From Clavelina lepadiformis (taxonomy: Eukaryota; Chordata; Ascidiacea; Aplousobranchia; Clavelinidae): a stretch of DNA of 64,000 bases. Positions 11,785-61,999 of the stretch are shown piece after piece; the stretch's first letter is position 1; each line of letters starts with the position of its first letter. The notes below the pieces were generated by a model, which saw only the letters and a list, made by a program, of their open reading frames with translations, was not told the origin of the DNA and ran no database searches. Position numbers and translations under genes: made by a program. Location: contig NC_135241.1 of NCBI RefSeq assembly GCF_947623445.1, positions 25,670,501 to 25,734,500 on the forward strand, given 5' to 3'.

Positions 11785-11786
11785 AT

Positions 11787-17101: not shown

Positions 17102-20100
17102 CTATGAGTTGTTGATTTCATCATAAGGCCCTTCAACATTTTCATATCTTCTTGAGCCGTTCTGTTGACCATGATTGTGAAGCAAAGTTTAATAGAAGTA
17201 TAATTTTGAAATCTTATTTTTACTTCAGGTTTGATTTTTATGAATTAGTTCAACGACTTCAGTTTAATTTTTCTCACCTCAGTATGAGCACTTGGAGTAG
17301 TGATGACTTCATCATAAGCACCTTCAATGTTCTCATATCTTTTGGAACTACTTGATGCATTTCCTTGATTGTTCGACTCAGCATTGGATTCCTCCCCATT
17401 GAAGACAACGTAACCTGCATTGTCTGCGTAATAAAGTGTTCAGTTGGTCAAATTTTACTTTAGTATGATGTTATTTCTATGAGACAGTATTTGTTACCTC
17501 CACTATAAACATCATGCTGTGGTATTAAGCTGTTATTTGTAAAAGCAAAAAAGTATAAAAGAAAAACATAAAAAAACTTTCAGGTCATAGACATGAAAAG
17601 AAAATTTGAGCAAATATTGATAAACCCTACATTATCAATATTATCGTCTTATATATTTTTCGCCATAAACCTTGTGGAAAAAAACTATGACGCCATTCTA
17701 GATACAGCACAATAAAAACATGCTCACATACAATTAAGGAAGTGGAAAAAGAGCTTACTAAACACAAAGTATACAATTGTCGCTGCTTTGCAAAGGTGAA
17801 GATGTTAGTATGTTATTTGGTATGCCCACATTAAATCTTATACTTCATATTGCTGTGGTATTAAGCTGTAATTTGTATAAGTCATAAAAAATTGTAACTA
17901 AGATAATTTACCAGTTTCTGGCTGGGAATTAGAAGCTCTGTTTCTCTGCAAAATTGAAACAAATTAAGATTCAAGCAGCAGAAATCAATGCTGCTGCGTT
18001 ACATTTAAAATAAAACAGGAATTACCAAGTGACCAGTTGTGCTTCCGTTAACTGCAAGATATCCATTTTGATCTGCAGTTTTACAAACACAAAAGCATGA
18101 TTTATATTTCTTGTAAACACAGTCATGAAGATTATGAAACTCATTAACCTATATTATTAGTAATATTAGTATATATTATATTAAGTTACTATTCAATTCA
18201 AAATGAAATACTTTCTCCAGCTTTGGAATAAATGACGCAAATATGAGCATGGTTGCAAAAACAATCATGAAGGTTTTGAAACTCATAAATCTATGCAACC
18301 TATTACTATTTACTCTTCTGGCTTGAATAGATGATAATAGCTTATTTGAAAATTAACATCAATCGAAACAATTTTTCGCTACTCAATAATTCTAGGGAAC
18401 ATTCAGTCAGAGCAAATATTATGAAGTCATACCTTCAGCTGGACCAACTACTTCATAATTCCTTTGGTTATGTGAGTTTATCTGCGATCATTTATAACTT
18501 TAATTTAATTTCAGAACAAATGCAAGCCTTTTACTACATAATAAATTGTTACAATATGCATTTCCATTATTATATACAAAAATTTTGGTTACTTGGGTTG
18601 AATCATTTGCAGTAACATCAATGTAACCGGGTTGATCTGGAAAAATAAACAATGTCTATATGCAACATGAGCATATGCATATATACGAGCAAATAAAAAT
18701 ATAACTGCCTATGTTAACTTTACTAGACTTAAATACAAATAAAAACACGAACAAATCAGAAAATTGTGATTAAATAGCTTTGAAAAACAATGAACATTTT
18801 TAAAACGAGTTCATAAAAACACATTTAAAGTTATTTGAAGCATCAGTTTTGGCCTAAAGAATAATGGCACCTGTCAATGTGTGGTTGCCACTGCCAGTAG
18901 GATACCGTTCATTAGATTGACTTTCATCTGTGTACATACCAAGAATACAGTGAAAAGAATTTGTAAACTTACGTGAAAAAGTTTTTCCAAACATTTACCA
19001 AACAACATCGTAAAATTAAGATAGTCACAAACTACAAATGGAGATAAAATAAAAACAATTTTGGAATATAAATATAAAAACCTAAGTTCCAAGTAAGTCA
19101 GTTTCAACAAAAATAATGAAACAAATGCAAGAAAATAAACCAACTTTTCTTCTGAGATCCACTTCTCCATCTATAAACACCATAACCAGCTGCACATAAA
19201 ATGACCACCACAACACCAGCAATAATACCAGCAATTGCACCAGTGGAGAGACCAGGAGTGCCAGGTGGTTCCCCATTGCCATCTGTATTGTCCACAACTT
19301 CAATGTCAAAGTATAAAACACTATTCGAGAATAAACTGCTGGTTGAAGATTTCACAATGAGCTCGTACCTTCCATTGTCTGAATTTGTTACCTGCAAAAT
19401 ATTTAGAGGTCAGACTACTTAGGTAAATTAATTATTTTTTATTTAATGAAAATTGTTATTATGCAAGGCAATTAAATATTACCCACATAATAATGATGGC
19501 AATTTTTATTATAATACAAAACACATTCACCAGAACTAAAATAAACATTCTCTATAAAACATATCGTTGAACATAATAATAAAGTAAATATTAATAACGT
19601 ACTTAAACATAAAAATGCGACAAAGGTTTGATGCCTTTGTGAAAGATTTAAATAAGGTATAATTTGAAAAACTTGGAACATTTTTTTGTATCTTACATGA
19701 TAAACACGGCAAAAACAGTATGTTTAAATTTCTATATACACCTTTAATGCAAACTCTGAGCCTAGCTATTGGTTGCTAAAGATCAAAGAAATGGTCTCAA
19801 AATAGAAGGCCGCATAACGATCGAGTTTTTCTCAAATTTCAATAATCCAGTCGTAAAATATCTTGGTGTAAAATTTAAGGCAATCAACACAAATCACAGA
19901 ATTTCTTATCTGTGTGTGATCCTTACTTTACAGAAATATTATGCCAATTACTTACTTGTGTTCGGGTGAATGTGAAAGTCTGTTGGCCTTGATCACCAGT
20001 TGATTCTATAGTCATTGAACCGTCACTTGCTACCGATGATCCTGGTGAATAAATCGGTCAACATGTTTAATAAAAAGATCTAGTAATTACTATGCGAGTG

Positions 20101-23100
20101 TAAACTAAAATTAAACCAATTATAGAACGACTGTGGCAAAGTTTTAACCTAAACCTTGCCTAAACGTAAACCTAAACGTTTTCACCTAAACCTAAAAAAA
20201 TTGATTTAGCTTTGGACAATATTGCTCCTTTAAAGTTTAAATCAGGAATAGGCAACCTTTGTAAACTCAAAAGCCTAAAAGGGGGTTGAGATATTTCTAG
20301 GTGACCAGGTCAAACATTTATGTTGTCAGATTTAGTTTGTGCCGTTATTTGGTCCCATATTGGTGTTCCTTTGACCTGACAAAGTTTCATTGGTAGGAAT
20401 ATCAATGCAGTAAAACAAACTTTTGCTGCACAATATCCTTTGGCAGGCAGAAATTGGCCAATCTCATTTCGCTAAGATTCAGCTTACACAGAAAAGTTAT
20501 CAAGTTTGTGCAAGGCTGCGCAAATTAAGCTATAAGACTGCTGATAGCTGAACTATCATGTTTTCAACTGGCATCTTAAAAACTCTTTAAAAATTTCAGC
20601 TTTATAATACGAAGAAATTAAATGACCATAGAAATCAAGTCAAAACTTACCATTTTTGCTCAATGATACAAATTGGGAGTTTGGATTTGAGAAAATCACA
20701 ACAGAGCAGATTCCAGTTTCATTCAAATTCCAGTTACAAGTTGGAAGTTTATCATCCTGTGTTGCAGCGTCTGGAAATACAAACATTAGTTTTATTGGGC
20801 AAGATCATCAAAGTTTAGAAACTTATGAGAGGCTTTATGTTAAAAAGCCTGTTTTTCGAAACATTCACATTATTTTATGCAAAAAAATTGAATTGAAAGA
20901 ATCATTTTTATTGCAGATTTTACACAATGACATAACTAATGTAAACGTGCATCTGTTTCTAATTTGATTTTCTAAACATCACTAACTCAAACCAATTACA
21001 AAGCAACTTATGGATAGAAAAAAGTTCTTTTATTAAAAGCAGTTGTCAGCAATAATTATCAAGAAGTTTTAATGATCAAAATATAGAGCATGTAAACATG
21101 TTTTGAAAGAATTCAAATTAATTTGTTCGATTCAAATAAAGTCTTTAATTAAAAGATAAAATTTAAAACTCTTTAATTAAAGGTTGAATTGTTGGTGCTA
21201 CTGTGCATGCTAATTTCAATTTTGTATATTTATTATTTTCATTACCAGTCACTACGAGTGAATAAAGTCAGTAAACATAATAAAACAATTGAAATAATTT
21301 TCACAGCAACGTCATTTCACAAAAATTCCAACACTTCATCAGAACTCACATATAACATTCAGGTAAATAGTTGAAACTTTAAATTGGTCGAATATGTTGC
21401 CGACATAACCACCAGGGTTACGAGTGAAAACAATTTCCAAGAAAGAATTGCAAATGTTTTTAGATAATTATGACAAATTACTCCAAGCAAAGTATGGTCT
21501 GCATGCAACTGATTGTTCATACTCATACAGAACATCAAGGTATATTGATGAGCTATAAGTTCCAAAGCTATCCATCGTTGTGCAGGAATAATTCCCAGTA
21601 TCAGAAGGTTTTGCAGACAAGGTAACACTTGGGCCAGTATTGATGACGTCATTTGATTGATACAATAAATATGTCGTATTAAGCTCATCGCTATAACTAA
21701 TAGTGCAGGAAAAATTCACATCTTCTCCAAGATAAGACATCATATATCCTCCAGTGCTTGTGATGTTGCTTACAGTCACATTGAATTCAGGAATGCCTAA
21801 AATAGTTGTGCAAGTTAATGCACCAAAGTACGGATTTTGCCCAATTACATTTGACTGTAATGTCTAAAAACGACAAATTACTCACGTTGCGCTGGAACCA
21901 CAGTGATGGTTTCATTATTGCTTGACCTTGAACCAACTTCATTTCTAGCAGTGCAAGAGACCAGACTTGATTGGTCAAGATCATAACTTATGCTGCAACC
22001 ACTGACTGAGCTGACTGTGTTTGACTGAGTCATATGAAATGTGAAGTTACAGTTTGCAGGTGGATTTGCTTCACTATATATGCACTGCATGGTAAGATTT
22101 TCATCTGATCTTAAAAGATATCCTTCTTCTGCAACTATTGTATATTGAGAAAGCTCAACTTTGCTGGTAACTGTGTCTGGTGCATCTGTCAATTTGAAAA
22201 ATGATCAAATTATTTTAATGTAACACTTTCATTAATTAATTCAAAACAAACATAAAAAAACAATAAAATCAATGTCTTTCTGAGAAGTTTTTAATTGTCT
22301 TTAATTTTTCATGGTATTTTTTCCTAATTTGGAGAACCTGCAATGTAGAAAGAGAAAAAATTTATGTTAAACTTTACACAGTTGCAATCAAGGCAATGAG
22401 TAATCATATTCATCGTACTCTAAACATTTGCCCTTTTTATGAAAAAAAGCAAGCAAAGCAGCTAAACAATGGTAGAACCAAGTTGCAAAATCTTTCATGA
22501 AATCTTAATTTTCTGTCACAAACTTATAAACTTATCAACAAGTCCACATGAAGTTTATTGTCAACAGTGATAAATACTATAATGTCATCGAATTATACTG
22601 TATTGTCGCTTCTGTGTATCTGATATAGTCACCAGTCATACTAAGCCTTTAGCTGGACATGATCAGCACATTAAGTAAAATGGCTCTGACTTGTAGTGCG
22701 TGACAACTTTATAGTTTATGTTTGAGCTGGGTACGCAGCGACTATTTTGTACTCAATAATTATAGACTCTGTTTGTAATCATCCGAATTTATTAATCTTA
22801 TTAATTTGTTAAAAGCACAGCCCTATGAAAATAAAACCTGATTTACTTTCTACCGTATTTATGTTGGTCTAAGCAAGCCATAACAGTGTCGTATTTTGAC
22901 TGAATTGTTAAGTCTGAAGACCTCGATATCTTACCTCCTGATCCTGAAACCTCTGGTACACTCAAATATTGGCTGTCACTGCCTTTGCAAAAAATGTTTT
23001 AACTCAACATATTTGTGACAATTCAGAAGCAACACTGAGAAAAAATGACTTTGTCATAAATCTCTACTTGCCCATTACCTATTCTTATACAGAAAAGTGT

Positions 23101-26100
23101 TCTACCTATAACAAGGTCTTGAACGCTTTACAAAGTATCAATAAAACTGAAATTTTGCAAAAAAAACAAAAAGTATGTTGTTGCCTACCATCTTCTTTAA
23201 CGTATTCGCAAATGACCGGGGAAAAAATTGCATGTATCCAAGGGATGCAAAAACGAAACTAAAACAACAAAGTACCAAAGTGATGGTTTCATCATTGCTT
23301 GACTTGCAACCAATTACATTTCCTGCAGTGCAAGAGAGGAAGAGACCAGACTTGATTGATCAAGATCATAAATTTTATTGCAACCACTAACTCAGCTGAC
23401 TGTTTTTGAATGAGTCATGTCAAAATTTTGCAGAGCACAAAAACAGAACACAAATAGAGGTTTTTTCCTATGCAAGGGCAGCTTTACACAAAAAGTTCCA
23501 GTCCTCTTAAAACATAGCACCATAGTGAAACTATGTTATCTTTTTAAATGAATCTTTGTTTAAATTTAATGAACACTTTACGGAAGTTGGTGCACATGTT
23601 GTTGGTGCACATGTTGGTGGTTAGGCCAGGTGCGTCTAGTTCTATATTTACATTTAGTTGCAAAGACGAAGCTTGCTCAGGCAAGATTTCACAATTTTGC
23701 AGAGCACAAAATAAAACACAAACTGGAACAGCTTTTCACAAAAAGTTCCAGTCATCTTAAAACATAGCACCAAAGTGAAACTAAGGTATCTTTTTTAAAC
23801 GAGTTCTTTTATCTTTTTTTAAATGCATCTTACTCCAAAGTTGCATAGAATTTAACGAACACTTTAAAGAAGTTGGTGATTCATGGGTGCAATAAATCCC
23901 CTCATAACCATCTAACATGACCGATATTTCTTGTAATAAATTGAAAAACGTGATGGAGCAATCACCATCTATGATGTTACGAACTGTCCTTTTTTTCTTA
24001 AGGCAAAAGCAGGCTGCTCCCATGTTTCCAGTACAGCTGTCAATGTGATACTAATTACAGTTGTTGTAAAATTCCAACCCATTTATCCTCAGCAAAATGC
24101 AGGAAAGACTGTGTCGAGGATTAGTAACAAGAAGATTAAGATATTGAAGATAGGCAACTACAGTAATCCAACAACTGAGGTCAAGGCTAATCAACAAGAA
24201 CTACGGGAAGAAGTAGAAGGGGAGGGCAAGGGCAACTATGCAAGGGCAACTTTTCACTAAAAGTTCCGTTCATCTTAAAACATAGCACCATAGGAACTAA
24301 GTTATCTTTTTTAAATGAGTTTTTCATCTTTGTTTAAATGCATCTTACTCTAAAGTTGCATAGATTTTAACAAAGACTTTTCGGAAGTTGGTGCACATGT
24401 TGGTGATTCACGGGTGCAAAAATTCTCCTCATAAACATCTAACATGACCGCTGTTTCTTGTAATAATTTGAAATATGTGTTGGAATAATCAATCAAATGA
24501 GGTCAAGAACTACTGGAAGAAGTTGATTTGTAGACTTATCTTGGTACAGCACTGGCAATATTGAAGACATCTGATATAGGTTTGCACTTAAAGAAAATTC
24601 ATTAAAAATGCCTAGTACTAACCTGCCTTGTCGTTTTGTGTAATAGGTATTCATATGAACTTAATTAAGTACTTAATGGCAGGCAGGTAAAATTCTCCTG
24701 GCATGATTAGATCAAGAACAAATAGATTTTAAGAAATAAGTATAGCGAAGTCATAAAACTTGAAGAGATTATCACGAAGTGCCGATTACGCCAAAATGGT
24801 CACATATTTTGCTTACATGAGTAGCACCCTATAACTATAGCAATAACTTGGATGCTATTTGGTGAAAAGTGAAAGATCAGTCTACCAAAGATTGACTGGC
24901 CATGGTAACTAAACAAACAGATGGATGGACAACAACATCAGCGGGACTAATTGCAAAAGAACTGCAAAATGTTGTAGGTGATAGAGGAAACTTGTCAAAT
25001 TATTGTTCAACTGGTAAAGGAGGCCCTAAGCCCAAGTACACTTGGAAAGATTACCAAGAAAGAACAGTTAATGTTAGACAAAGTTAGACGGAGTTAGAAA
25101 GTTAGACAAAGTTAGCTAGATAAATAAAAAAGTTAATGTTTCACATTTAATTAGCCAGTTAAACATTTAATGTAGATTATTACCTAAACCAATAATTTCT
25201 GTTTGGCTTGTTAAACCAATTTTAGAATTTTCAACAAGTTATGAATTTTGTGCATATATTTGTCTACAGTTGGCAAAATTATTACTGTCATGCTATCAAT
25301 TTTGTTCTGCTCATTTCTTGTCCGTTTACAGCATTGTATTTATAGTTGGTAAAATCTAATGTAAAATTAAATAATATCATTTTTATCCTGAAACATCTTT
25401 TACTCACATAATACGTCCAGTGTATATTCTGATGATCTTCCGCTTGCTAGATAGACATCAATATAAGGAGTGACAGCCTGACATGAGACTACTTTGTTGT
25501 TGTCAGTTCTTTGCAATGAAGATAATATGAATGGTTCTCCCTTTGTAAAATTGGTGTCATGTTACAAAAATAGACATGTAAATTCAAGGTCAAAAAATTG
25601 ATTCACCTGTGTCCTATTGTAGCTTTTTCCTCCAATATAGAATCGAGAAGTATTTCCAGCAGGAATGACATCATTGTAATTACAAGTCAGATTCAAATCA
25701 TCTCCTTTAACCACAGTCAGTTTATTGCCATCAATTAAACTGCTTGCAAGGGATACATTGGGTGCTGGATAAAAAACAATGCCACGTTGAGCAATGACTG
25801 TAAACAGCTTTCATTACTTATGGCTAGCTTATTATTTGAACGTTTTTGACAACAAAAATAATTAGAAACCTGTCCAACATTGCAGATTATCCTGACCACT
25901 CCATTCTGCTGAAGCCAGACAAGTGGTGTCACTAGATGTCAGCATTGTACCATTTGAGTAAAACAAGTCTCCTCCGTTAGAACAAGCAAATGTTCCTGAT
26001 GAGTTGAATATCCTGGAAGTTGCATCCACAATAACATCATATGGAAGTGAGGAGTTGCAATCTGCGGCAAATTGCACATCTATTAGTATTAACTGTATAA

Positions 26101-27979
26101 AGTAGCGTAATTAATTAAGCCTACTTTATATTACAATGTTAGTGCAATTTTTTTGGCCATGCATGCATGATATATTCATCATGGCTACTGTTTGACCTTG
26201 TACTATGCCAGTTTCTAGAAAACTCTGAGTTGCGTTTAAAATTCAGTCATTTACATAAATTTTAAACACATACCTTGCACAGTTCTATTGATAGGACCAG
26301 GTGTGGTTGCAATAATGCATCTCACTTCGATATTTATATCCCCAGCAACAAGTGGTTGAGTGATTGTCAGTGTTGTTATTGTGTAATTTGTTCCATCAAT
26401 TGTTTGTTCAGTGCAAGTGATGCTGTCATATGTGCCTGGTGATGGAGCAACACATCCACCAAATAATGCTGAGTAAAACTGAGCACCACTTCCACTATCC
26501 AGCTCTCCTCCATAATACCAAGAACATGAATCAGTAGTATCAATTGGTGTTGGAAACTGAGCAGTTACAATGAGATTGTTGAAACCAGCTGCCAATGGAT
26601 TGTACGGAGGATCAGTGCTGATTGTTGTGATTGCTGCCGCTTTCAAAACACCTGGTTAAAATTATTTCGCAAAATTAGGATTTCTCGCTTCTTGATTTCT
26701 TTACATGGTTTTAACCGTACTTCATTTAAAATTCATTTTAGCTGCTGGTTTACTTAGGCATTTTACTTTACGAAGCAGGGACTTAGTGGAGGGTGCGATT
26801 AACACTCGTCTCAAACAGTCAGGAGTAGCTCAGTTCAAAAGATAAAGGTGATTACTGGCCCTGAATGGATCTGGGGCAAGGATGGGTTTAAAGGGAGGGG
26901 CAAGTCCAAAAACAAATTGGCTTTAAATCAAAGAACGGTTTCCAGTAAATATACTGGTGAAAAAGTTTTTAATAATGTGTAGTGCTTGGACAATTATTGT
27001 GAAAATTGTGTTGCAAATTTGGTTTTCTATTATGGTGATTATGAACTATGATTGTCATTATAACAGACAACTGGTTGACCCTGAATTTTGTTTCAGGATG
27101 AAGACCAGGCCTGAACAACAGGCGAATGGAAGATGATGAAGAGGTGATTATGAAATTACAATGTAAAAACAATATGCTTGATGACTGCCGATTGTATTAG
27201 GTATGATAGGCTAGCTAACTCGTTTGAGATAGAATACGTTTCCATAGATAGGTGATTAGTAGCAAGTAGTGTTTATTTTCATTGTAAGAATGTCACCGGC
27301 GACGGTACATAAATTTGTAAAGCATTTTGTTTTACTACAGTTACCAGTACCAGACTATGATAAAGCCAGCAGCACAGAAATGTAGAATAGCTTTTACATT
27401 AACCAGTACAAATAAATCAACAGTAAGCTACATTAGGCTTATTCAATGCAAAATATTCCTGTTGTACACTTAAGTATGCTATAGTTACACCTATTTCCAT
27501 TTACTTGTCGGCCACAGGAAAAATTCTATCCATACTTGATCCAAACACCCAAATCATACCTATTGTTTCTTTAACTGTGGCTTAACAAAAACCGCCATCT
27601 TCATCATAATTAAGTGGTGAATTCGTGTTTTTTGCCATTTATTTATGATAATAACTACTTAACCACTACATATTATTAACAATCCATTATCCAATATATT
27701 TCCCGATAATTACTCTTTGAATTTATGCCAACTTATTTATGGACTTTAAAGGTTTAACTTGGAACTATAACTCGATTACTCCCCTTGTATAGTTGTATCA
27801 AAACATAACTATCCTTAAAATTTACCATGATTACAGCATATAACAAGCTCTTTTACGATGTTGCAAACTAGTAGATTCTCATAAAATAGAAAGGCAAGGA
27901 AACAATTTTAATAAACATGCAAACAAATATACAAACCATATATTATCAGCAGACAATGAAGATCCAAGCCCAACCTCAT
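17102..27979 (-). CDS. Receptor R1: Ig/CCP type I membrane protein with tyrosine-rich tail
   Basis: Sixteen exons join with matching phases into 783 aa: 27937-27979, 26274-26651, 25870-26061, 25607-25764, 25408-25540, 21886-22185, 21482-21796, 20651-20770, 19956-20041, 19145-19391, 18593-18636, 18433-18481, 18026-18072, 17912-17945, 17278-17423, 17102-17161. In order they give a signal peptide (MRLGLDLHCLLIIYG), Ig-like A, CCP (four Cys, Trp before the last), Ig B on two exons, Ig C (extra Cys pair), Ig D (DTGNYSC), membrane-proximal Ig E on three exons, a membrane span (GAIAGIIAGVVVVILCAAGY) and the tail. Tail tyrosines lie in GYIDV, NYEVV, GYLAV, GYVVF, RYENI, AYDEV, RYENV and PYDEI. Such tails usually recruit SH2 proteins after phosphorylation; the ligand is unknown. 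Weak points are the exon 7 donor (the consensus site at its homologous place is lost, so a later one is used) and the GTTGGT donor of exon 10. The 3.2-kb intron 22,186-25,407 holds relic repeats. Confidence 0.82.
19145..19391 (-). other. R1 exon with membrane span
   Basis: This exon ends Ig E (SDNGRYELIV, F-strand without the usual Cys), then has a Pro/Gly-rich stalk (GEPPGTPGLS), a 20-residue hydrophobic span and a basic stop-transfer segment (YRWRSGSQKK). The layout fixes the protein as type I with a cytoplasmic C-terminus. R2 (34,350-34,578) and R3 (49,897-50,113) have homologous exons with the same 0-to-1 phases. Confidence 0.85.
20252..20421. repeat. Dispersed repeat inside an R1 intron
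   Basis: This aligns closely with 12,447-12,636, sharing CTAAAAGGGGGTTGAGATAT (one base different there) and the TTTGGTCCCATATTGGTG core. It lies between the two exons that encode the middle of Ig E. Upstream, 20,140-20,205 has several CCTAAAC words in an irregular array. No coding content. Confidence 0.75.
22186..25407. repeat. R1 long intron with relic Ig exon and a threefold repeat
   Basis: Positions 23,278-23,418 are a decayed copy of the Ig C exon (compare 21,903-22,030), matching over the region that encodes the GCSISYDLDQ and CTARNEVG segments but with indels and no open frame. Around and after it, a block of about 200 bases is present three times (about 23,410-23,610, 23,690-23,890 and 24,230-24,410), sharing AAAGTTCC...CATCTTAAAACATAGCACCA. 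No further exon with correct phase was found here. Confidence 0.7.
27064..27141 (+). mobile_element. LINE 3'-end fragment in R1 intron 1
   Basis: About 78 bases match the 3' end of the LINE at 44,963-45,032, including GATGAAGACCAGGCCTGAAC and the GAAGATGATG tail, with small differences. This is a 5'-truncated insertion antisense to R1. Confidence 0.8.
27937..27979 (-). other. R1 signal-peptide exon
   Basis: This 43-base exon encodes MRLGLDLHCLLIIY plus one base of the next codon and ends at a GTTTGT donor. The start ATG has a GCC just before it. The same exon appears at 38,089-38,131 and 56,718-56,760 with at most one changed residue, and it joins in phase 1 to each gene's first domain exon. 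The leader is short, so another leader exon upstream cannot be excluded. Confidence 0.75.
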
Positions 27980-38790: not shown

Positions 38791-38863
38791 CATAAAGAAA
38801 ATAATTTGTACCTGTCTAGACTCTTTCATTTTTTCAAAGTCCTAGAATGAGCTAAGTAATAAA

Positions 38864-42099: not shown

Positions 42100-42370
42100 T
42101 ACTAGATAGTTAAATTAAATTGATAATAGAACAATATTGTTTCAAATCAGAGCATGTGAGCTTCTGAACATGCTTTCAATCACGGAGTGAAATAAAAATA
42201 TCTGCTCATAATCGGATTCAAAGTTGAGTTGAATTATTCTTACTACGTCAGCTTCCAAGCCCACGCAGTGGCAAAAGATAAGACTAACTAGAGTAAGATG
42301 AGATAACCAGAGCAAATTGGCAAGGTTCATAGCAATGCAAGTGGAACTGATTCTACGATGAAACATGTTC

Positions 42371-48591: not shown

Positions 48592-51500
48592 CTAGATTGT
48601 ATCGTCATATTGCCCATCTATGGTGTCATAGTTTTGCCTATCTGGGGCGTTTTCATATTGTGAAGTCTAAAACAGAAAAAAATATGTTACATGCGACTAA
48701 AACTAATCGAAATTCACAAAAATTTGATCATTAAAAACAAGACGCTAAAATTTTATTCTAACTCGTAATTATTGTATGTTTAACTTCATATGTTTTATGT
48801 AAGGGAACAGTTACCTGGTCAATATTTACTGCTAAAATAATTTCTTCGTGTACAGGGTGGAGCAGAGAAAGCACATGTATTTAAAAATTAACTTCAGGCC
48901 AGAATTAAGCTCTAACTTATAGCACTGGATTCAAACGCGCTAACCATTGCACTGTCCAGGCTTAAACAATCGCAGCAATAAAGATCAAATTAAACTTTAA
49001 GGTGATTTGTGAATTAGATATTTGCTCTACTGGCCTTCAGTTACAAGTATTTGCAAGAATAAATTTTAAAATGTGGCCGAAATTAATCCAGTTATTGCAA
49101 ACACCGGTATTCATCGTTAAATTAAATGGAGTTATTCAGTTTTCACTTTCATGACTCAACCGATGAGGAATCAGCGCAAGGTTTAAGTCGTGCAAAGACT
49201 TTTCTCAGTCTTGAGGATAAACATTATCACAACATGTCATTTCAAAAACATGCGGTTTTTCTCCTGCAACTTGTATTTTTAACGACATGAGTATTTTTTG
49301 AAGGAATTGCTTACCGGGTTTTGTTTCTGACCAACGTTGACTGCCAGATAACCGTCTCTTCCTAAACAAGTTGATAGAAGTGAGATTGATAATCTAGTTT
49401 AATTCTTGCAAGTAGAAACAAACTTAATTGAAACAAATTTATATTTATTCTTTTGCCAGACAAAACTCCCAAAGCAATCCTTATATTATACCTTCCAAAG
49501 GTCGGTCGATGCTTTCATAAGTTCCATTGGTTCCTTGACACTAAAAATTTGATAAAACTTATTGAAGATTCACAACGTAGCACCAACAAAAATTTACTGA
49601 CAGTCATTCACCTGCAAGTTTTCTCGATTCTGATCTTTGATTTCAATGCATTCCGGAGCAACTGCTAACATTACACTTATTATTTCGCACTGGTTGATAA
49701 AATATTTCAACATACAACTTAACTTTTTTTACCGTTTAAGAAACTAGCAGTAAATTCAATTGAAATTGTTCAATTTACCTATGTTTGCTGGTTTTTCAAT
49801 CGAGTTGAATGAACCTTAAAACAATCATACAAAAATTAAATTACATGATTTAAATTTTAAACTGTGCAATTAATATAATTTATAGGAGATTATTACTTTT
49901 TGGATTTTGTTTTGGTTTTCTCTTCACAATATAAACTGAGACCACAATTGTTATGCAGACGACAATGACAGCTGCCACAGACCCTCCGACAATTGCTGGT
50001 ACATCCAGTTGTTGATTGTTGATGACAGCGATGTTAAACGCGATTGAGTAGTTGTACGGTGGAAGAGGATGACTCAGTACAAGAGCATAAGCTCCTTCGT
50101 CATTGGATGTTACCTGCGTGGTTCAACACATATTTAATTTTGAAATTATAACTTTCAATACTTGTATTTCAATTAAAGCATTACACGATATAATTGATAT
50201 TTAAAGAACATTCCTCCACCTTTGTTTTTTTGTATAAATAATGTTGTTCCTGGCCAATGCTGAAAACGATATTCGGACCATCGTTTCCAACCGATATTTC
50301 TGCAATATTTCAATGTTTTTAGCAAAAAGGTAACGACATTTATCAAATATAACAGCTCTTACTATTCATATCCAATGATGCAAATTCCACTTCTGGGTTA
50401 GAGAAGATTATGACATCACAAACTCCAGTTTCCTCGATGACCCAAGCACATGATGTTGTAGTTACTTGATATGGAGCATCTGATTAAAAAGAAATTTTAA
50501 TTCTTGTTTCCGGGGATCAATAAAAGTTCAAAGCAAATTAAAGAAGTCAAATTAATGTTTTTGTCATTTACAACGCTTACATTGCACGTCCACGTACACT
50601 GATGCATCAAAACTTCCAAACAAGTCACTTGTAACGCAAGTGTAATTTCCTGCATCAGCAGTTGTCAAGGAAACCACTTCAAGCACCGGTTGTTTGACAA
50701 TAGTTCCATTTGGTAGGATTATTTCAAATTCTGTTGCAAGTTCGTCTTCATATGAGATATGACATGACAGTGTCATATTGTTGCCTGTTTGAGAGATCAC
50801 GATGTTATCACTCTTAGGCATGTCATCTACTTTTCCAAATGAAACTGACCCTTTAAAAAAACACTGAAACTGTAATTGCATAGTTTAATGATGAAATCGT
50901 GTGTGATTAATAGATACATCCAAACTTATATGATATGTTCTATCTTACTTGTCAAAGGCACAATGATAACTTTTTGCATCTTGCTTGAAGCAAAACCATA
51001 ATCATTGGTAGCAGTGCAAGAGATTGAGCTGTTTGTGCTAAGATGGTAATCCATGTTGCAATCACTTGTATGTGCTGATGAGATATTCTCACAACTTTTG
51101 CCACAAACTGTCCATACGCACGATGCTGCAGGATTTGCATCACTTGAACAAACTAATGTCAGATTCTGGTCTGATCTAATGAGATATTCATCTTTTCCAA
51201 CTTCCAAGAAGTATTTTGATGCAGAAACTTGGCTTTTTGCGAAACTTGGTCTATCTGTCAAGAACAGTTTATTATTTATTGCACACACATTGATTTTTCC
51301 CATTCATTCACTCCATAAAATATTTAATGGCATCATATAATACTTAATACACATAGCAGAGCCCATGCCAAGTAGTTAAAATGACTGGCAACCATTAGAT
51401 AATGGCTCAAATTTCACATAGTAATGAATTCGAAAACCGCTCTCTCATCACCGACCTGATTGAAATAACTTGGGTTCACATAATGCTGAAATCAAAATCT

Positions 51501-54500
51501 AGTCAAGGAATTGGCTTTCATATCATGATTTTAAAGCTTCACCTGCACATTACTGACTGACTGATTGATTGATTGATTGATTGAAACTGATTGCAACACA
51601 CCTTTAGCTCGCAGTACATAAAAACTTAACTAAGTTCACCGTAAAGAATTTATAGATTGAAAATCATAATCACAGAAATAATTCTTTAAAACATATATAT
51701 TTGGGAGCATCAGATGAAGCTTAAACCTTGCAAATTGCAACTATTAACTCAACAATTAATTCTTGTTTGGTTTGTTAAACCGATTTTACAATTGTCAGCG
51801 AATTTTGAATTGTATACGTAGGTTTATCAACAGTTTGATGAAATATCTAATATCAATACCAACATTTTTAAAATTTTGTTTTGTTCTTTTTTATCCATTT
51901 ACAGCGATATCCATTTTATCCATCCATTTTATCCATTTTTATCAATTTACATTTCTTTTTTGTCCATTTATATATATACTGGCAACGATTGCTTCAAAAA
52001 ATTAAGTGATATAATTTTTGTCCTGGGACATCTTTTACTCACATAATACATCCAGTGTATATTCCAACGACCTTCCTCTTGTAGGAGAGAGATCAGTATA
52101 AGGAGTAACAGCCTGACATGAGACTACTTTGTTGTTGTCACTTCTTTGTATGGGGGACAGTGTGAATGGTTCCCCCTTGGTGAGTGAAATACATTCATTA
52201 AAGTGAAGCAATTACACAGTTCTATTATTCTACGTAACTAAGTTGAAAAAATGAAATTAAAGAACTGACCTTAGTCGTGACGAACTGATTTTGATCAACG
52301 TAAAATCGTGAAGTATCACCAGATGGAATGACGTCATTGTAATCACAGGTCATTGAGAGAGCTCCACCTTCAGGTACACTCAGCTTATTGCCGACAACTG
52401 AGCTGCTTGTGAAGCTTACAGTGGCTGCTAAATACAAATCATCATTTAAACAATATTAAAATATGCCTAAGAAATTAACTTGTAATTAACTATTTGAATT
52501 ATTGAAAATTTCAAAATTAACTAAAATGTTGAGTTGACAAAACAAACCTGTCCAACATTGCAGATTATTCTGACCACTCCATTCTGCTGAAGACAGACAA
52601 GTAGTGTCACTAGATGTCAGTATTGTACCATTTGAATAAAACAAGTTTCCTCCGTTAGAACAAGCAAACTTTCCTGGTGAGTTGAACATCCTGGAAGTTG
52701 CATCCACAACAACATCATATGGAAGTGAGGAGTTACAATCTGCGGCAAATTGCACATCTATTAGTAATAAGTGTATGAAGTAGCATAATTAATTAAACCT
52801 AGTTTACATTACGATGTTAGTGCAATTTTTTTGGCCCAAGCAACTTACAACTGATGTTTTATTTAAAAAGCAAAAGATATTAGAATATATAATAAATATA
52901 AATTGTGTTGAATCAATTTTATGTTATTAAAGAATGGAGAGAAAATCAAATTTTATTATGTAAAGATTATATCATCTTGTTAGTCGTGCGTATAGATTTC
53001 GTACAAAATATTTGAAGTTCAGCTTGTAAACGTCCAAATGATACATTATGCATTGTATGTGTCAGCAGTGCCATTTGTCATCTAGGCTGTTTGTTTGTCT
53101 TTGTTCCACAAGTTTCTTGTCGAATAAAGAAACTATTTTTGTTTTTAGTTTATTTATTTTTACGCAGCTTGCATTTTACTACGTTTACTACATTTACTAC
53201 ATATGCCAATGACCACGGTCAATTTTGATCACACTAGCTTCCGTCACCATGTTATGATGAATAAATGATAATATAATTCACTTTTCGAATTCATGCGCAA
53301 CAACAACAATCACATCCACCATTGCTACAATTATCCTACAATGAAGGAAATTTCCAGCAGGTTTTTAGGAGTATCTTCAATGTTTGGTTTTTGGCCAAAT
53401 CGAACTGAATATGGACATTTTTTATGAGTTCGGCCGAATCAATTTGATCTGCAGAAATTTTGGTTGTTACCTCTAGTAAGTTGTTATTTTTTATGATGTT
53501 AATGGTATTTTAGCTGCTTTCATGTTTAACTATTTAGAATAATTACATTCACGTTAAATTTTGTTTAAGATTCAAAGCTCACGTTTTGATATAACAGAAA
53601 TTTTACCTATTACCTATTAGGTTCTTACAATTTAATAATGTTCCTGATAATGTTTAGATAATAGTCAGGTTTTATATGTACCTCTTATATTAAGTACAAT
53701 GGATTGTGAAACAAAAACAACACTAAGTTCAACCAGATGTCCATCTTCTTCAGTTTTCAGCTGTGCAATGGTAAGTTGTGTGGTGAAGTTTGATGCTGAC
53801 ATAGCAACTGCACTGTTGGAGATAAGTGACATGTTACATCACTGAGGTACCACAGTTCATTTGAAGTTATTTTATAATAAATGATATAATCATTACATCA
53901 ACATCACTTATTCAAGGTTTATTCAACAATTTCTACATGTGCAAGTCTGTGTAAAGAAGTATTAATAACTAACGAATATGCATATTGCAGATAAAATGAA
54001 TGAAGTAACGTAACACTGGAAATGTTTTGAGACGTATATTAAGCTGTCAACAACAAGCAGACTAGTACTCTGCTGTAGAAAAGCATAAATTGATAAAATG
54101 CATTTGTATGAAACATATTTTCATAATAAAAATCAAGTTGAAAAAGTATTTCAAAGAGTTCATCACTCGTTCATCTACATATCAACCCATATAGTCACCT
54201 AACATTTATTTGACTGGAGTAGATGGAAGATCCGGCAGCGCTAACAACATCAGGGTATGGGAAATATCCTGCTTGGGCAACCTGAGTCTGTAAAAGTAAT
54301 TGAAGTTGACATTTTATGTTTATTGATTCACATTTTAGGTTACTGACAGTTGATTATTTGATCCAAAAAATATATTGTTTCAAGTACTCATAATAAGTAC
54401 TACAAATATAACTACTACTAAACAGCCACATTAACCAAGTAAGAACAAAACCATAGTAACTTGTGGTCATCATTTGGTAATAAATAAGTATATACCCCAT

Positions 54501-56760
54501 TAAATATCCAGCTAAGAATCCAGTTTCCTCCTGATAAGATCACTGATGACGGCGGTGAAACTGTAGCAGTGATAACCACAGTGGAGTCGGTTGCTTGTAC
54601 AGGGTGTGGTGTAGTGAGATTTGATATGCTTTGTCCTTGTATTATCACAGCAGTTTGTAGAATAACTGCAAGTGCAAAGTATAAACGATGATATCAGTTT
54701 TATATGCTGTGGTGGAAGCTACTTTGCTTTGTTAATTATTATAAAAGTCAATTTTTTTGAGAGTTAGAACAGAAAACTGCTTAAAATGAGTTGATGAAAA
54801 CTATTTCCTGTTGTTTCATTTTTCAAAGCTGTTTCATATACCTTTTCAATATTGGTGATTGTTGTTATTCAACAACTTAAAATACTACAAACTAGCCAAG
54901 AAATCATAAAGTATCAAGTGTTTTGTCAATGCGTTGTATTTAAAAAACAAAAGTTAAACCAATTAACAATGATAGTTCAAAAATTTTTAAATGTATCTTT
55001 CCCTGATAACCATAATGGTAGATATTTTTGCATATTTCGTTATCTAATGTTGTGCTTTGGATCTCAGTTGAAATAAATAATTGTTTATTTCTATAAAAAA
55101 ATTGACATCAAGTGTAATATAACACACCTTAGTGTTGTGACAAATATACACAGTTGTAAGCATGAGTAATAAAAGTTAGGTACACCATAGGTATTATGGC
55201 ATAAATATGTTTGTACTGCTTCCATTCTCAAATGTTTTATCTTTTAAATAAATGTGTTAGCTGTTATTTTGTGGGAAGTTTGGCAGTGGCAGACAAATAC
55301 TGCATAACAAACTATATTTAATCCAAGCTAGCCGATCTTTAAACAACAGGAAATACACATGATTTAATCTTCAAGCCACATATACTGTACAAACAAACAA
55401 GTTGACTATGACCACAACTATACCTATACTCTGCAAGTAAATATTTTTTATAACTGTATATTTCATAACAACTACACATATCAAAATATATTCTTTTTCA
55501 ATTAGTTTCAAACTGACAATGATTGTAAATTATGCAAAACTTTTATATAGTTCAAGTTTTCGTTGATCACTCTCAAAATTTTAATCATGAACTTCATTTC
55601 TAAAAAGCAATTTATTTCATGCTTTCATTACTGTATTTAGTCATCTTCACTTACCAAAATAACTAACACATAAACTATTTTGTATGTTTAACAAGCTATG
55701 TAATATTTTAAAGCTAAATAACGAGAATTTTGTTGTTTCATTCTTATTTTGTAGCTTTTTGTAAAATGCCAGATTCAATGTGAATCTGCAAGAAAGGTTT
55801 TGATTGAGGAAATAACAGGAAATAACCTGGTCGATATTCATGCGTAATATTTCGGTTTGTGGTTGATTTGATACACCCTTAGTTGAAATGAAATAGCATG
55901 TATTTATTCCACACACCATCATTTGTGTTATATACTAACAACTGATTAATCGCCAAAATATGACAATGTAAGTTGTAAAAAGCTGCTGGCCAAAACTTTG
56001 AAAAGTTTCTAGAAAAGCCCCAAACATGAGCATATTATTTCAACAAGATACCGGTACATTATTTATAAGAACAGTAACCTGCCCTAGATACGAATATTTT
56101 GACTGTTTATCAACTACGCTTTCTTTCATCACACATAACATGCTTGTAGTGCAATTTCATGCAATTCAACAACAAATGCCTCCATACAAATGCCAACATA
56201 TCAACCTATGCTTTAGGTTGATCAACCTATCAGCCTATCCTACCTTAAGCTTCTATGCATTGTCTCACTTTTTTCCAATGGCAAAGTATCACTAAATTTT
56301 ACATTTTATGTTTGTGTTAAAAACATACTTTGAGGTTCGAGCCCATAGGCTATAAATTAAAAACAAAAAAAAGATATTTTTATCATAAAGTTTCCTGAAA
56401 ATTCAACTATTGACATTTAAAATTTACAAGGTACAATTAATTGATGTGATCCCTCGCTTTAACCAAGCATGTCTGGTGATTCAAGAGGATTTTGTAACTG
56501 GTTGTGCACTTGGCATACTGGTACTGTGCATTGGTCATACTTGGTTGGTACTAGTTAATGAACCATTTCACGAGTGTTAAAAACAACAACAGAAATTTAT
56601 TAACAATTGTGAATGATAAACACAGCATTTTTATGATGTTCAATTAGTATTCTCATAAAAAAGAAACCTCCCAAACAAGGCAACAATTTCAACCAATAGG
56701 CAAACAAATGTACAAACCATATATTATCAACAGACAATGAAGATCCAAGCCCAACCTCAT
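48592..56760 (-). CDS. Receptor R3: Ig/CCP type I membrane protein with ITAM-like tail
   Basis: Seventeen exons give 720 aa with every phase matching: 56718-56760, 54496-54665, 54199-54287, 53682-53812, 52548-52739, 52270-52427, 52043-52175, 50949-51254, 50581-50850, 50363-50479, 50220-50299, 49897-50113, 49779-49814, 49612-49661, 49492-49540, 49315-49361, 48592-48666. In order they give a signal peptide, a divergent Ig-like A split over three exons, CCP, Ig B (two exons), Ig C, Ig D (DAGNYTC), Ig E (three exons), a membrane span (VPAIVGGSVAAVIVVCITIV) and the tail. Tail tyrosines lie in TYESI, GYLAV, QYENA, NYDTI and QYDDTI at the C-terminus. TYESI and GYLAV form YxxI-x9-YxxV. CCP and Ig B are very close to R1 (about 87% identity by eye in CCP). 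Intron 1 and the rest hold no recognised genes. Predicted role as for R1; ligand unknown. Confidence 0.83.
51553..51584. repeat. (TGAT)n microsatellite in an R3 intron
   Basis: About seven TGAT or TGAC units lie in the intron between Ig B and Ig C. Confidence 0.8.
56718..56760 (-). other. R3 signal-peptide exon
   Basis: Encodes the same MRLGLDLHCLLIIY leader as R1 and ends at the same GTTTGT donor. It joins in phase 1 to 54,665 and downstream. Confidence 0.75.
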
Positions 56761-57412
56761 GGCTTCTCCTTTAGATGGACAACTTTGTTATAAGCAGATA
56801 TTAAGTTCTTGATTTTCAGTGGTTAATAAAACTTAAAATACGCAAAAGTTATTCAATAATGAACTGCTATTGCCTATATATAAAATTTAGTCTAAAAAAT
56901 GCATTATGGATACTACTGAAAATGATGTGGTACACTATAGAAAAATGCTGAAGTGAAAACGTCTTGCTTGTAAACAAAACATAATTCTCTTAAATGGTAG
57001 GCCTAATCCAGTCTACAAAATTCCTGAATGGCAGCTACTTCCAAAACTTCCATACACCTTGTTGATTATGAGGTAAAATGTGAAATACATTTGCAATAAA
57101 AATTTTCAATATACAATAAAGTTGTTCATTATGTGGAAGATTTTGATTGCTGAAATAATTTTCATTTGAACAAATATCAGTGCATGTTTAATTTGGGCTA
57201 TTGTAAAGTGACAATTACATCACAATGATTGCATTATTTATGTGATGGATGTGCTTGTGTTAATTTGATAATTAGTTGGTGCTCAAATGACCATAAACTT
57301 AAGACGTGATGATCAATTGTTATATTATTTTAACATTGAGCTTTAGAGCAGGTCATGCTGACTCATGCTTAGCACTTCCTGGAAACATTCTTGCTATTAA
57401 TTATTTTGTCAA
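56761..57412 (-). promoter_or_regulatory. Shared 5' flank of R3
   Basis: Near-identical to the R2 flank; the CTTATAAC box before the ATG is conserved. The similarity continues leftward into intron 1 to about 56,445. Confidence 0.45.
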
Positions 57413-59934: not shown

Positions 59935-61999
59935 ATGGAAGTCAATCTTATTTCTTTGTTCTTGCTTGGTACGTATTTTGTTAATATTTATATAACTTTA
60001 GTAAGCTTTCAAGATTGTTATGTAATTCTAATACAAGCACTAGAAGAATATGGCAGTAGAAACTGCTTCATAGGACCATGGCAAATATGTCTAGCCGCTT
60101 TTTTCATTGTTATGAATTCTTTAATATAATCGTGAATGTTTGGCTTCATTTAATTATAATAGAAACAAATTTCAGTTCTGTCATGGAACATTCATTTCTG
60201 CAACGCTCAAACTTTTTCATCACTTGCACCATCTAGTGCAATGCAAGCAATTGGGTCTGATGTTGAAATCTCTACAACCGTGACCACATCATCTCCTTTC
60301 GGAGCAATATGGAGAATTGACGGTGTAAACGATAATTAATGATAAATATCTTTAGTTTGCTATAGCATTTCAAGTTCAATTCAGTTTTGTTTTTAATGTT
60401 TGTTTAAGATTGTTGTTGGAACTGCATCTGTTAACTCTGCTGGAACTGCTACTGCTGGAGCTGTTACGACTGGAACAATTTATGAAAGTAGAGTTGATAT
60501 AAGGTCTGTGTGTATATTGCCTTTGCCCTTTAGCATAGGTCATTGTTTCCCAACCTATTTGAACTCCAGACACACTAATCTACCCAAAGCAATGAAATTA
60601 TGAAATGACACACATTCAAGCCCTAGCTCTAGCTATTCGAAACTTGTTTACCTGACATCCAGTCATTGTCGGTCTCTTTATTAAGTGTGTCGAGGTGGTT
60701 ATAATTTCATATAAACCTAAGTAACAAAACAATGCCAGTGCTTTCAAGACTGAATTGCGCAGGATGTGTAGATCAACATCTAGTACAAAAAATATTTTGT
60801 GACAGTTTTGTTTAGCGATAGTGGAGGTAAGTGGATGCGAGTTTAAGACGCAATTGTAATTTAAAAACAATGCACCTGGGCATCGAGACACATCATTTGA
60901 GAACCTCTTGCGTGGGTCATTTTGTATGGTGGGCAGTCGCATATCTGGAACATTTAAGGGGATGTTCTACCAAATTTTGATAACTTGGGATGCTTCATAT
61001 TTTAAAATTTTTGCTGCTTTACCCATAAGATCGTGTATTGTTGGGTCTTATGAATGTGTTGTATTCTTTATGGCGTCTTAAGGCATTGCACGTAATCCAT
61101 ATCACAAGTTATTACTTTTTTAAGATTTTGTAAATGTGTCACCTAGAATAGAATTGCTGTTGTATTATGCTGCTCCATGTGCTAACAAATTCGGAAAATA
61201 AAAATCAAAAACAACGTTTTTGGAGTTTGTACTAAATGCAAATATCTATATAGTGCCGGATCATATACTTTAACCCAATACACCACTGTTCTTACCATAC
61301 AAGGATTGCTTGCCAGTGAAGATGGTGTAACTGTTGATGTTGGAACTCCTGGTATTTACGACACTTCACTCAACTTAAATGTACAAGGTAAGATTTCATT
61401 TGCAACAATACAGTAAATAGTCTTCACTTAGACACAATACCAATATATGTCACTAATCATTATCTCACTGGGTGCAATCTATTACAATATGTATTGGGAG
61501 ATGCCCTGCACTATACACATCACATTGCAACATAATTTTCATGCAATGTTTTCAGAAATGTTTGCTCCCAATTCGTAGTAACATTATCTGAAAAAGAATT
61601 GCAAATGTAAGAATTTCGACATTAATTGATCTCGAACCTTATCACCAAACCTATTCTTTAGTTGTTTATTTTATCTATGCAGAAAGCAGTTCAATATTGG
61701 GTACCAATATTTCTATCATCAATATTATTTTATTTAATAATATTTGGTATTTATCTTAGATATTTCAACATGCAGTCTCCATTATTGCAGAATGCAGTTT
61801 AAACACAACAGCTTACCCCAGTCTCACCTTCACATGCGATGATTCTCCATGCGAGTTCAACTCTGCTGGAACACTCTCGTGTGCTGAAGGTTACACAACA
61901 AGTGGTGTAAGCACAACCTCAACCACTTGCCAGGCTGATGCAATGTTGACCAATTTAGATGTACTGTCATGTGTAGCAATCAATGTTAGTGCAAATTAA
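59935..61999 (+). CDS. R4: secreted Ig-like/CCP protein
   Basis: Five exons join into 206 aa: 59935-59968, 60176-60324, 60409-60503, 61254-61387, 61791-61999. The first encodes a hydrophobic leader (MEVNLISLFLLG). The next three encode one Ig-like domain with the same phase pattern (1, 0, 2, 1) and length as Ig A of R3. The last encodes a CCP-like domain with six Cys (CSLNTT, CDDSPC, LSCAEGY, TTCQADA, LSCVAI) and lacks the usual Trp. It ends VSAN then TAA with no membrane span or GPI-like tail, so a soluble protein is predicted. An AATAAA lies at 62,074-62,079. It is divergent from R3 and may be a soluble partner or decoy for the membrane receptors, which is inference. Confidence 0.75.

What the first reader, a model, noticed from the sequence alone, without database searches (positions are those of the whole stretch)
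17102..61999. Cluster of chimeric Ig/CCP receptors with multi-tyrosine tails plus a soluble relative
Seen: three head-to-tail genes (R1, R2, R3) and one opposite-strand gene (R4), with all exon phases matching, mixing Ig-like and CCP domains; R1-R3 add a membrane span and 5-8 tail tyrosines. Known: CCP domains occur in complement receptors and ascidian allorecognition proteins, and Ig plus tyrosine tails occur in immune receptors. Inference: this is a tandemly expanding self/non-self or pathogen receptor family with a soluble member.
Basis: partly seen in the sequence, partly recalled or inferred. Interest (0 to 1): 0.88.

Follow-up and report, generated by a model that had tools for sequence, protein, structure and literature searches.

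The report
Fester-like self-recognition receptor array in Clavelina
This stretch of the light-bulb sea squirt genome is a slice of a 1.5-million-base array of immune-type receptor genes built like the receptors that decide tissue fusion or rejection in a distantly related colonial sea squirt, which makes it testable whether that system is ancient or was invented twice.

Summary
The window (Clavelina lepadiformis chromosome 2, inferred from protein and chromosome-length matches) carries three minus-strand receptor genes and one plus-strand soluble gene. My exon chains for R1, R2 and R4 translate to exactly the public predicted proteins LOC143445779, LOC143445786 and LOC143446355. R1's two middle Ig exons are absent from its public model, and the donor of the second reads AT instead of GT. 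R3 is open, but the donor of its nearest first exon reads GG.

They belong to an array on C2:24.45-26.01 Mb with 45 related transmembrane exons and 48 of 52 matches to R1's first-domain exon. R1 (signal, IgV-like, CCP, two Ig, TM, tail with seven YxxI/L/V motifs, 597 aa) has the published anatomy of Botryllus fester co-receptors. Another gene in the array (LOC143446258) has the anatomy of fester itself: Ig, CCP, two optional cassettes, then membrane spans on three exons. R4 is the ectodomain of that type with a secreted end; its first domain is predicted as an antibody-V fold without cysteines.

Sequence homology to Botryllus proteins could not be tested; ligand and function are inferred. The most valuable reading is a fester/FcoR-like system outside the botryllids.

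The parts
27937..27979 (-). R1 exon 1, signal peptide start (MRLGLDLHCLLIIY)
   Evidence: In LOC143445779 = P0006; window translation identical
26274..26651 (-). R1 IgV-like exon, phase 1-1
   Evidence: 52 matches in own genome, 48 on C2
25870..26061 (-). R1 CCP (sushi)-like exon, phase 1-1
25607..25764 (-). R1 Ig domain A, first half, phase 1-0
25408..25540 (-). R1 Ig domain A, second half, phase 0-1
23273..23424 (-). R1 dead IgB-like exon with a stop; same stop in a paralogue
21886..22185 (-). R1 IgB exon, phase 1-1; not in the public model
21527..21796 (-). R1 IgC exon, phase 1-1; donor reads AT, 8 of 8 other copies compared GT; not in the public model
20651..20770 (-). R1 membrane-proximal Ig-like domain, exon D1
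19956..20041 (-). R1 exon D2 of the same domain
19145..19391 (-). R1 exon with end of the Ig-like domain and the membrane span
   Evidence: 22 matches, all on C2
17102..18927 (-). R1 tail exons 18927-18871, 18636-18593, 18481-18433, 18072-18026, 17945-17912, 17423-17278, 17161-17102 (stop); 9 Tyr, 7 YxxI/L/V
38089..38131 (-). R2 exon 1, signal peptide start (MRLDLDLHCLLIIY)
   Evidence: In LOC143445786 = P0043; identical
35826..37131 (-). R2 CCP 37131-36946, IgV-like 36567-36196, CCP 36014-35826
34757..35706 (-). R2 Ig domain A 35706-35564 + 35348-35219; D exons 35142-35026, 34836-34757
34350..34578 (-). R2 exon with membrane span
   Evidence: 23 matches, all on C2
32965..34194 (-). R2 tail exons 34194-34156, 34012-33963, 33720-33672, 33441-33395, 33039-32965 (stop); 6 Tyr, 3 YxxI/L/V
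55003..55033 (-). R3 nearest first exon (MQKYLPLWLS); donor GG where a paralogue has GT
56718..56760 (-). Second signal-exon copy upstream of R3, would give GT-AG throughout
53682..54665 (-). R3 IgV-like domain on three exons: 54665-54496, 54287-54199, 53812-53682 (phases 1-0, 0-2, 2-1)
49897..52739 (-). R3 CCP 52739-52548; IgA 52424-52270 + 52175-52043; IgB 51254-50949; IgC 50850-50581; D 50479-50363, 50299-50220; TM 50113-49897
48592..49814 (-). R3 tail exons 49814-49779, 49661-49612, 49540-49492, 49361-49315, 48666-48592 (stop); 5 Tyr, 3 YxxI/L/V
59935..59968 (+). R4 exon 1, signal peptide start (MEVNLISLFLL)
   Evidence: conserved in two slice copies; P0061 identical
60176..61387 (+). R4 IgV-like domain on exons 2-4: 60176-60324, 60409-60503, 61254-61387
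   Evidence: antibody-V fold
61791..61999 (+). R4 exon 5: CCP-like domain and secreted C-terminus ending in a stop

Best explanation
The four genes are part of one large clustered receptor family in the colonial sea squirt Clavelina lepadiformis that works like the fester / fester co-receptor (FF/FcoR) allorecognition effectors of Botryllus. SHOWN: R1-R3 encode an IgV-like domain and a CCP at the outer end, Ig domains as a stalk, one membrane span, and a tail with repeated tyrosine motifs; the array also holds at least one gene of the fester plan; R4 is a secreted IgV+CCP protein. INFERRED: the IgV+CCP end binds a cell-surface or tissue ligand. Binding clusters the receptors, Src-family kinases phosphorylate the YxxI/L/V sites, and paired sites recruit SH2 proteins to activate or restrain blood cells or epithelium on contact. 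R4, sharing the binding end but with no anchor, competes for the ligand or acts as a diffusible partner. Tandem duplication and exon swapping generate the repertoire.
Against: No Botryllus sequence was available: three protein searches returned only Clavelina (60 listed, 6 and 46 hits). R1-R3 have no ITIM (by [SIVLT]xYxx[ILV]), no strict ITAM and no hemITAM match. Two loci match the membrane exons of the fester-type gene against 45 single-TM exons, so fester/FcoR pairing is not general here. One HECT locus lies in the array range, far from one per pair. In the public R1 model no Pfam Ig match reaches its cut-off (Ig_3 22.8 bits against 30), and the CCPs of R2 and R4 are below theirs. The T4 tail exon shows dN/dS 1.03 on 9 pairs, so conservation of that exon is not shown. 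Expression, polymorphism and ligand are unknown.
Confidence: 0.6

Rival explanations
1. The array is an innate pathogen-recognition family: germline-diversified Ig/CCP receptors on blood cells bind microbes or complement products, with R4 as a secreted opsonin-like form, and colony recognition plays no part.
For: CCP-like and Ig domains, large copy number, soluble and GPI-like forms suit pathogen binding; constrained but variable V exons.
Against: The match of both FcoR-type and fester-type anatomy, including the three membrane exons and the optional cassettes, is more specific than a generic pathogen receptor would predict.
Confidence: 0.25
2. The receptors serve gamete self-incompatibility or another reproductive recognition step.
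For: Blocks to self-fertilisation are known in other ascidians (passages).
Against: Nothing in the window points to gamete expression (expression was not tested); the tails look like signalling tails.
Confidence: 0.07
3. The anatomy is convergent: Ig, CCP and tyrosine tails were assembled independently in Clavelina and botryllids.
For: No match outside Clavelina in the hits; coloniality, to which fusion allorecognition is tied, is thought to have evolved at least six times in tunicates (passages); phase 1-1 Ig and CCP exons shuffle easily.
Against: Two different architectures co-occur in one array, and the fester-type exon-to-domain map matches feature by feature. The searches need shared 5-residue words, and Botryllus FF loci share little sequence even with each other.
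Confidence: 0.3
4. Ordinary single-copy adhesion proteins, or mostly pseudogenes.
For: R1 has a lost splice donor and a dead exon; R3's nearest first exon has a lost donor.
Against: Not single copy; R1, R2 and R4 are complete and match public predictions; the R4-type copy P908 is intact with 29 substitutions and no gap in its exons.
Confidence: 0.05

Closest known systems
Botryllus schlosseri fester co-receptors (FcoR)
   Same: Signal, V-type Ig, sushi, two C2-type Ig, one TM, long tail with YxxI/L/V; 520-610 aa against 597 (R1) and 582 (R2); large multigene family.
   Different: R2 has a second CCP; R3 and several paralogues have IgB/IgC exons; no ITIM or strict ITAM in R1-R3; sequence homology not tested.
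Botryllus fester / uncle fester (FF)
   Same: LOC143446258: signal, Ig, sushi, two optional cassettes, three membrane exons. R4 has fester's plan up to sushi on exon 5.
   Different: Two loci match the membrane exons, so they are not paired with every FcoR-type gene; the tail is longer than fester's 'short tail'; R4 lacks the membrane part.
Vertebrate Ig receptors (FCRL5, MAG, CD22)
   Same: Best profile matches of the Ig domains among solved structures by sequence.
   Different: No CCP domain in those (recalled); the matches rest on generic Ig domains, and contactins, axonin and FGF receptors match too.
Ciona vCRL1 and other CCP-rich ascidian proteins (recalled, no call)
   Same: CCP domains, polymorphic ascidian receptors.
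   Different: As recalled, CCP repeats without the IgV plus tyrosine-tail plan.
Hydractinia allorecognition proteins
   Same: ITAM and ITIM motifs reported on candidate allorecognition genes (passages of the review); Ig-type ectodomains (recalled).
   Different: Cnidarian; no CCP (recalled).

Membership tests
Botryllus FcoR | Order: signal, V-type Ig, sushi, two C2 Ig, one TM, long tail | tested here: met
   R1 as in P0006 against the section on FcoR. Signal by eye; R1's V domain model is weak. R2 adds one CCP, R3 adds two Ig.
Botryllus FcoR | Length 520-610 aa | tested here: met
   2 of 3: R1 597, R2 582; R3 715 does not fit.
Botryllus FcoR | Tail with ITIM, hemITAM or core YxxI/L/V | tested here: met
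   Core motif: R1 7, R2 3, R3 3; no ITIM, strict ITAM or hemITAM match in these. ITIM-like match in 9 of 60 family proteins and strict ITAM in none; 7 of the 60 had no detected span and so no tail to scan.
Botryllus FcoR | Encoded next to a fester-family partner | tested here: inconclusive
   Two loci match the fester-type membrane exons against 45 TM exons; but one Botryllus haplotype also holds FcoR alone.
Botryllus FcoR | HECT E3 ligase gene beside each pair | tested here: inconclusive
   One HECT locus, at C2:24.81 Mb, in the array range; 68 HECT exon matches genome-wide, the next on C2 at 26.38 Mb, outside.
Botryllus FcoR | Sequence homology to Botryllus FcoR | not testable with these tools
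   No Botryllus FcoR sequence at hand; some searches returned only Clavelina.
Botryllus fester (FF) | Signal, Ig, sushi, three TM | tested here: met
   LOC143446258: four hydropathy peaks, the last two adjacent on one exon, read as three spans. Not for R4, which has no TM.
Botryllus fester (FF) | Sushi on exon 5, exons 6-7 commonly skipped, exons 8-10 three TM | tested here: met
   R4 exons 1-5 read from DNA; two optional cassettes from isoforms P0073-P0075; three membrane exons and separate sushi and last V exons from DNA. Exons 1-3 and the cassettes of LOC143446258 were not read from DNA. Fester map: passages.
Botryllus fester (FF) | Lies in the fuhc locus with fuhc-sec, fuhc-tm, BHF, HSP40L | not tested
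   No sequences of these at hand.
Immunoglobulin superfamily, V-set | V-type Ig fold of the first domain | tested here: met
Sushi/CCP (PF00084) | Score over the Pfam cut-off | tested here: not met
   R4 E 0.021, 15.6 bits against 20.7; R2 E 0.69; R1 and R3 not listed; 2 of 24 members match at E <= 0.01. Four cysteines are invariant in 18 aligned members, and public relatives P0076, P0078 and P0079 carry a Pfam sushi label. Called CCP-like on this basis.

The most novel reading that the evidence does not exclude
Clavelina carries a true homologue of the Botryllus fester/FcoR effector system: both receptor types sit in one 1.5-Mb array with alternative secreted, GPI-like and tyrosine-tailed forms. 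The system would then predate the split between Stolidobranchia and the Phlebobranchia/Aplousobranchia clade, and colony recognition in different sea squirt orders would rest on one inherited, NK-receptor-like locus rather than on repeated invention.
Probability: 0.5. Interest if true: 0.9.

Novelty: new variant of a known kind. Interest (0 to 1): 0.8.

Why it matters
In the text I read, fester and FcoR are described for Botryllus and botryllids, and the 2020 review says Clavelinidae have not been studied for fusion or allorecognition (passages). Seven full-text searches listed no paper that by title and abstract describes such genes in Clavelina or another aplousobranch; two of these showed only the first 20 of 685 and 15 of 104. 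The FF/FcoR study cited as Rodriguez-Valbuena et al. 2024 was not at hand (no preprints are held) and may say more. If homologous, the array turns 'was allorecognition invented once or several times in tunicates' into a direct test, and gives a second species in which receptors with NK-like wiring can be studied. If convergent, two colonial lineages arrived at the same two-receptor design, which is just as telling.

Tried and rejected
Signal exons for R1 and R2: my first scans listed MRLGLDLHCLLIIY for R1 but I did not single it out, and I chased an unconserved candidate in a paralogue; the public proteins settled it. A reading of R4 as a fester-type gene with downstream spans was rejected: it has a stop and shares about 150 bp of 3' sequence with copy P908, while copy M971 has a donor at that point. 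HECT neighbour as fester-locus evidence: only one locus in range, which by eye (recalled) looks like a conserved HECT gene next to a DYRK-type kinase; dropped. Haplotype comparison of public proteins: uninformative, because the database is clustered at 90% identity. Mitochondrial check of the species: no COX1 match. Ascidia mentula was considered as the species because its assembly also has 95 scaffolds, but it is 197.0 Mb. In the Pfam scan the mycobacterial and adenovirus matches of R1's membrane region are below their cut-offs and were ignored. Fold search of the 597-aa R1 model gave generic Ig proteins with poor whole-length superposition; not used beyond 'Ig'.

The listing stops at 60 proteins (weakest E 2e-72) and was probably cut there, so it does not show absence elsewhere; others (6 hits; 46 hits, E up to 1) list fewer than 60, but both need shared words, and searches scored only the candidates sharing most words.
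Full report
WHERE IT IS. The window is G000:C2:25670501-25734500 of a 209-Mb genome in 95 contigs. Three window gene models give proteins identical to Clavelina lepadiformis entries on a 26,535,022-bp contig. Contig lengths C1 28.784, C2 26.530, C3 25.735, C8 19.510 and C9 15.726 Mb lie within about 0.01 Mb of chromosomes 1, 2, 3, 8 and 9 in the genome note (28.79, 26.54, 25.74, 19.51, 15.73; passages). C. lepadiformis is a colonial aplousobranch ascidian. The handle itself is unnamed, so the species is an inference, but a strong one.

THE GENES. I rebuilt the exon chains from splice sites, phases and conservation among paralogues. R1 (minus strand, 27979-17102) has 15 exons, 597 aa; R2 (38131-32965) has 14 exons, 582 aa; R4 (plus strand, 59935-61999) has 5 exons, 206 aa. 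All three equal public predictions letter for letter: LOC143445779, LOC143445786 isoform X1 and LOC143446355. For R1 and R2 the first exon and one tail exon came from those public proteins; R4 I had complete before seeing its entry. These are predictions; I saw no transcripts. R3 has 17 exons, 715 aa, one open frame, but the nearest first exon's donor reads GG where a paralogue has GT. A second copy of an R1-type signal exon at 56760-56718 would give GT-AG at all junctions. No public protein identical to R3 was among the hits; the closest full-length one was 85%, but the database is clustered at 90%. The public R1 model omits two in-phase Ig exons (IgB, IgC). The IgC donor is AT in R1 and GT in 8 of 8 other copies compared, one in R3 and seven in the slice.

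ANATOMY. R1: signal (by eye), IgV-like exon, CCP-like exon, Ig domain A on two exons split 1-0/0-1, an Ig-like membrane-proximal domain on three exons, the last also holding the membrane span, then seven tail exons. R2 has a CCP before the V exon and a CCP after it, and no IgB/IgC. R3 has a different first domain on three exons, then CCP, IgA, IgB, IgC, the membrane-proximal domain, TM and five tail exons. Pfam finds Ig domains over cut-off in R3 and in R1 with IgB/IgC included, but only below cut-off in R2 and in the public R1 model (Ig_3 22.8 bits against 30). There the two Ig domains rest on the structure model (residues about 205-405, blocks mostly 81-93) and its Ig fold matches. The V exon has no Pfam match and the CCPs fall below the cut-off (R4 15.6 bits against 20.7). 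In an alignment of 18 family proteins four CCP cysteines (C139, C168, C184, C198) are invariant. The tails hold 9 (R1), 6 (R2) and 5 (R3) tyrosines, of which 7, 3 and 3 are YxxI/L/V. Shuffling R1's tail gives a mean of 0.93 such motifs, and 0 of 5000 shuffles reach 7; for R2, 149 of 5000 shuffles reach its 3. One pair, YxxPhi-x8/9-YxxV, sits in the same exons of R1, R2 and R3. It resembles an ITAM, but the second site has V, so a strict ITAM is not met; no ITIM was found in the three. Of 60 public family proteins, 9 have an ITIM-like match and none a strict ITAM; tails were defined by a hydropathy rule of mine, and 7 of the 60 had no detected span and so were not scanned. Seven relatives carry tails of 350-400 residues with 15-18 tyrosines, for example P0020 with repeated AYAEV motifs.

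THE ARRAY. R1's V exon has 52 matches in the genome, 48 of them on C2:24.478-26.011 Mb. R1's TM exon has 22 matches and R2's TM exon 23; the lists do not overlap and all 45 lie on C2:24.454-26.013 Mb. These counts are exons, not proven genes. R4's CCP exon has 16 matches, 15 on C2. A 150-kb slice (C2:25,870,001-26,020,000) shows the same modules in changing order: V-CCP-V-CCP, V3-CCP, V4-CCP-V-CCP, one or two IgB-IgC pairs. The window is therefore a slice of one large array that evolves by duplication and exon shuffling. Pooled dN/dS (pairs with dS 0.02-0.6) is V 0.60 (153 pairs), CCP 0.40 (129), IgA1 0.61 (25), IgA2 0.41 (44), D1 0.25 (12), TM 0.71 (10) and tail exon T4 1.03 (9). The outer domains are under constraint with some freedom; the pairs share ancestry, so the values are descriptive. 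They do not show positive selection, and they do not show that tail exon T4 is conserved.

THE SOLUBLE MEMBER. R4 ends in a stop at 61999 after its CCP. The copy at 25906493-25908559 (P908) shares the stop and about 150 bp beyond. It has all its splice sites and differs by 29 substitutions with no gap in its exons (dN/dS 0.64). A third copy at 25612442 matches R4's last exon to its end at 97%. A fourth (M971) has a GT donor where R4 and P908 diverge, and the exons that follow on its strand are V, CCP, IgA and so on; a public protein, P0040, makes that join. So the secreted form goes with a change at one splice point, present in three copies. Other relatives are V4-CCP proteins with a threonine-rich stalk and a hydrophobic end, which looks GPI-anchored by eye (P0062, P0078).

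THE FESTER-TYPE GENE. The profile search brought in LOC143446258 (P0073-P0075; 458, 476 and 505 aa): R4-type signal, IgV-like domain and CCP, then a region in which the isoforms differ by two cassettes (18 and 29 residues net, from the sequences), then hydrophobic segments that I read as three spans (four 19-residue peaks, the last two adjacent), then a tail with proline-rich stretches. In the genome the spans lie on three exons (25167698-25167573, 25166600-25166472, 25166339-25166217), and CCP and the last V piece have their own exons. It lies on C2 within the array range. A second locus at 24.952-24.9535 Mb matches the first span exon at 58% and by eye the third. For Botryllus fester, the passages of PMC3549757 that I read say: 11 exons, exon 5 a sushi domain, exons 6 and 7 very commonly spliced out, exons 8-10 three predicted membrane domains. 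The review PMC12065747 (abstract, passages, sections 9, 10 and 11) gives fester as signal, Ig, sushi, three TM, short tail. It gives FcoR as signal, V-type Ig, sushi, two C2 Ig, TM and a tail with ITIM, hemITAM or YxxI/L/V, 520-610 aa, and says most genotype-specific splicing in both falls between TM and the Ig/sushi region. R1 fits the FcoR description and LOC143446258 the fester description. R1's unused IgB/IgC also lie in that same stretch.

WHAT I CONCLUDE. Shown: real, complete genes for R1, R2 and R4, a giant array, receptor and secreted forms, and two anatomies that match the two Botryllus receptor types. Inferred: that they bind a surface ligand, signal through phosphotyrosine, and serve self/non-self recognition. 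Open: homology to Botryllus. One search listed 60 proteins (probably cut), 6 and 46, all Clavelina; the searches depend on shared 5-residue words, and the review says FF loci share little sequence even within Botryllus. I therefore do not file the genes as FF/FcoR members; I say they work like them and put homology at about even odds. Against a simple copy of the Botryllus system stand the missing ITIMs in the window, only two loci matching the fester-type membrane exons against 45 TM exons, and one HECT locus in range rather than one per pair.

PRIOR KNOWLEDGE. The allorecognition review of 2020 states that Clavelinidae had not been studied in a fusion or allorecognition context (passages). 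Seven full-text searches listed no paper whose title or abstract describes such genes in Clavelina or other aplousobranchs; I saw 20 of 685 titles and 15 of 104. In the Botrylloides leachii genome paper the words fester and fuhc do not occur (word search). The 2024 FF/FcoR study cited in the review was not at hand. The individual proteins are already public as uncharacterised predictions, so the novelty is in what the array is.

Noticed in passing
6675-11822, minus strand: A 1715-codon open frame with reverse transcriptase and integrase motifs (Ty3/gypsy-type by eye), G+C about 46% against about 33% in most of the window.
   Followed up: no
62491-63242, minus strand: Open frames that look like part of a transposable element, just downstream of R4.
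   Followed up: no
44581-44997, plus strand: Frame resembling the end of a LINE-type reverse transcriptase (by eye).
   Followed up: no
about 27900-32500, 38000-42300 and 56600-58800: Long apparently non-coding blocks repeated upstream of R1, R2 and R3 (many matches), consistent with gene-plus-flank duplication; the signal exon MRLGLDLHCLLIIY also sits upstream of R3.
   Followed up: partly
C2:25598169 and C2:25612442, against the window's R3 and R4: An R3-type TM exon and an R4-type CCP exon (97%) about 14 kb apart repeat the divergent R3/R4 arrangement, suggesting the pair was duplicated together.
   Followed up: no
P0010, P0020, P0026, P0035, P0039, P0052, P0060 (public proteins): Family members with tails of 350-400 residues and 15-18 tyrosines; in P0020 repeated AYAEV and NPLY motifs among lysine runs.
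   Followed up: partly
C8:18.04-18.91 Mb, C1:19.21-19.24 Mb, C3:7.41-7.48 Mb: Other dense clusters of ordinary sushi exons in the same genome (best 150 of 1412 candidates scored).
   Followed up: no
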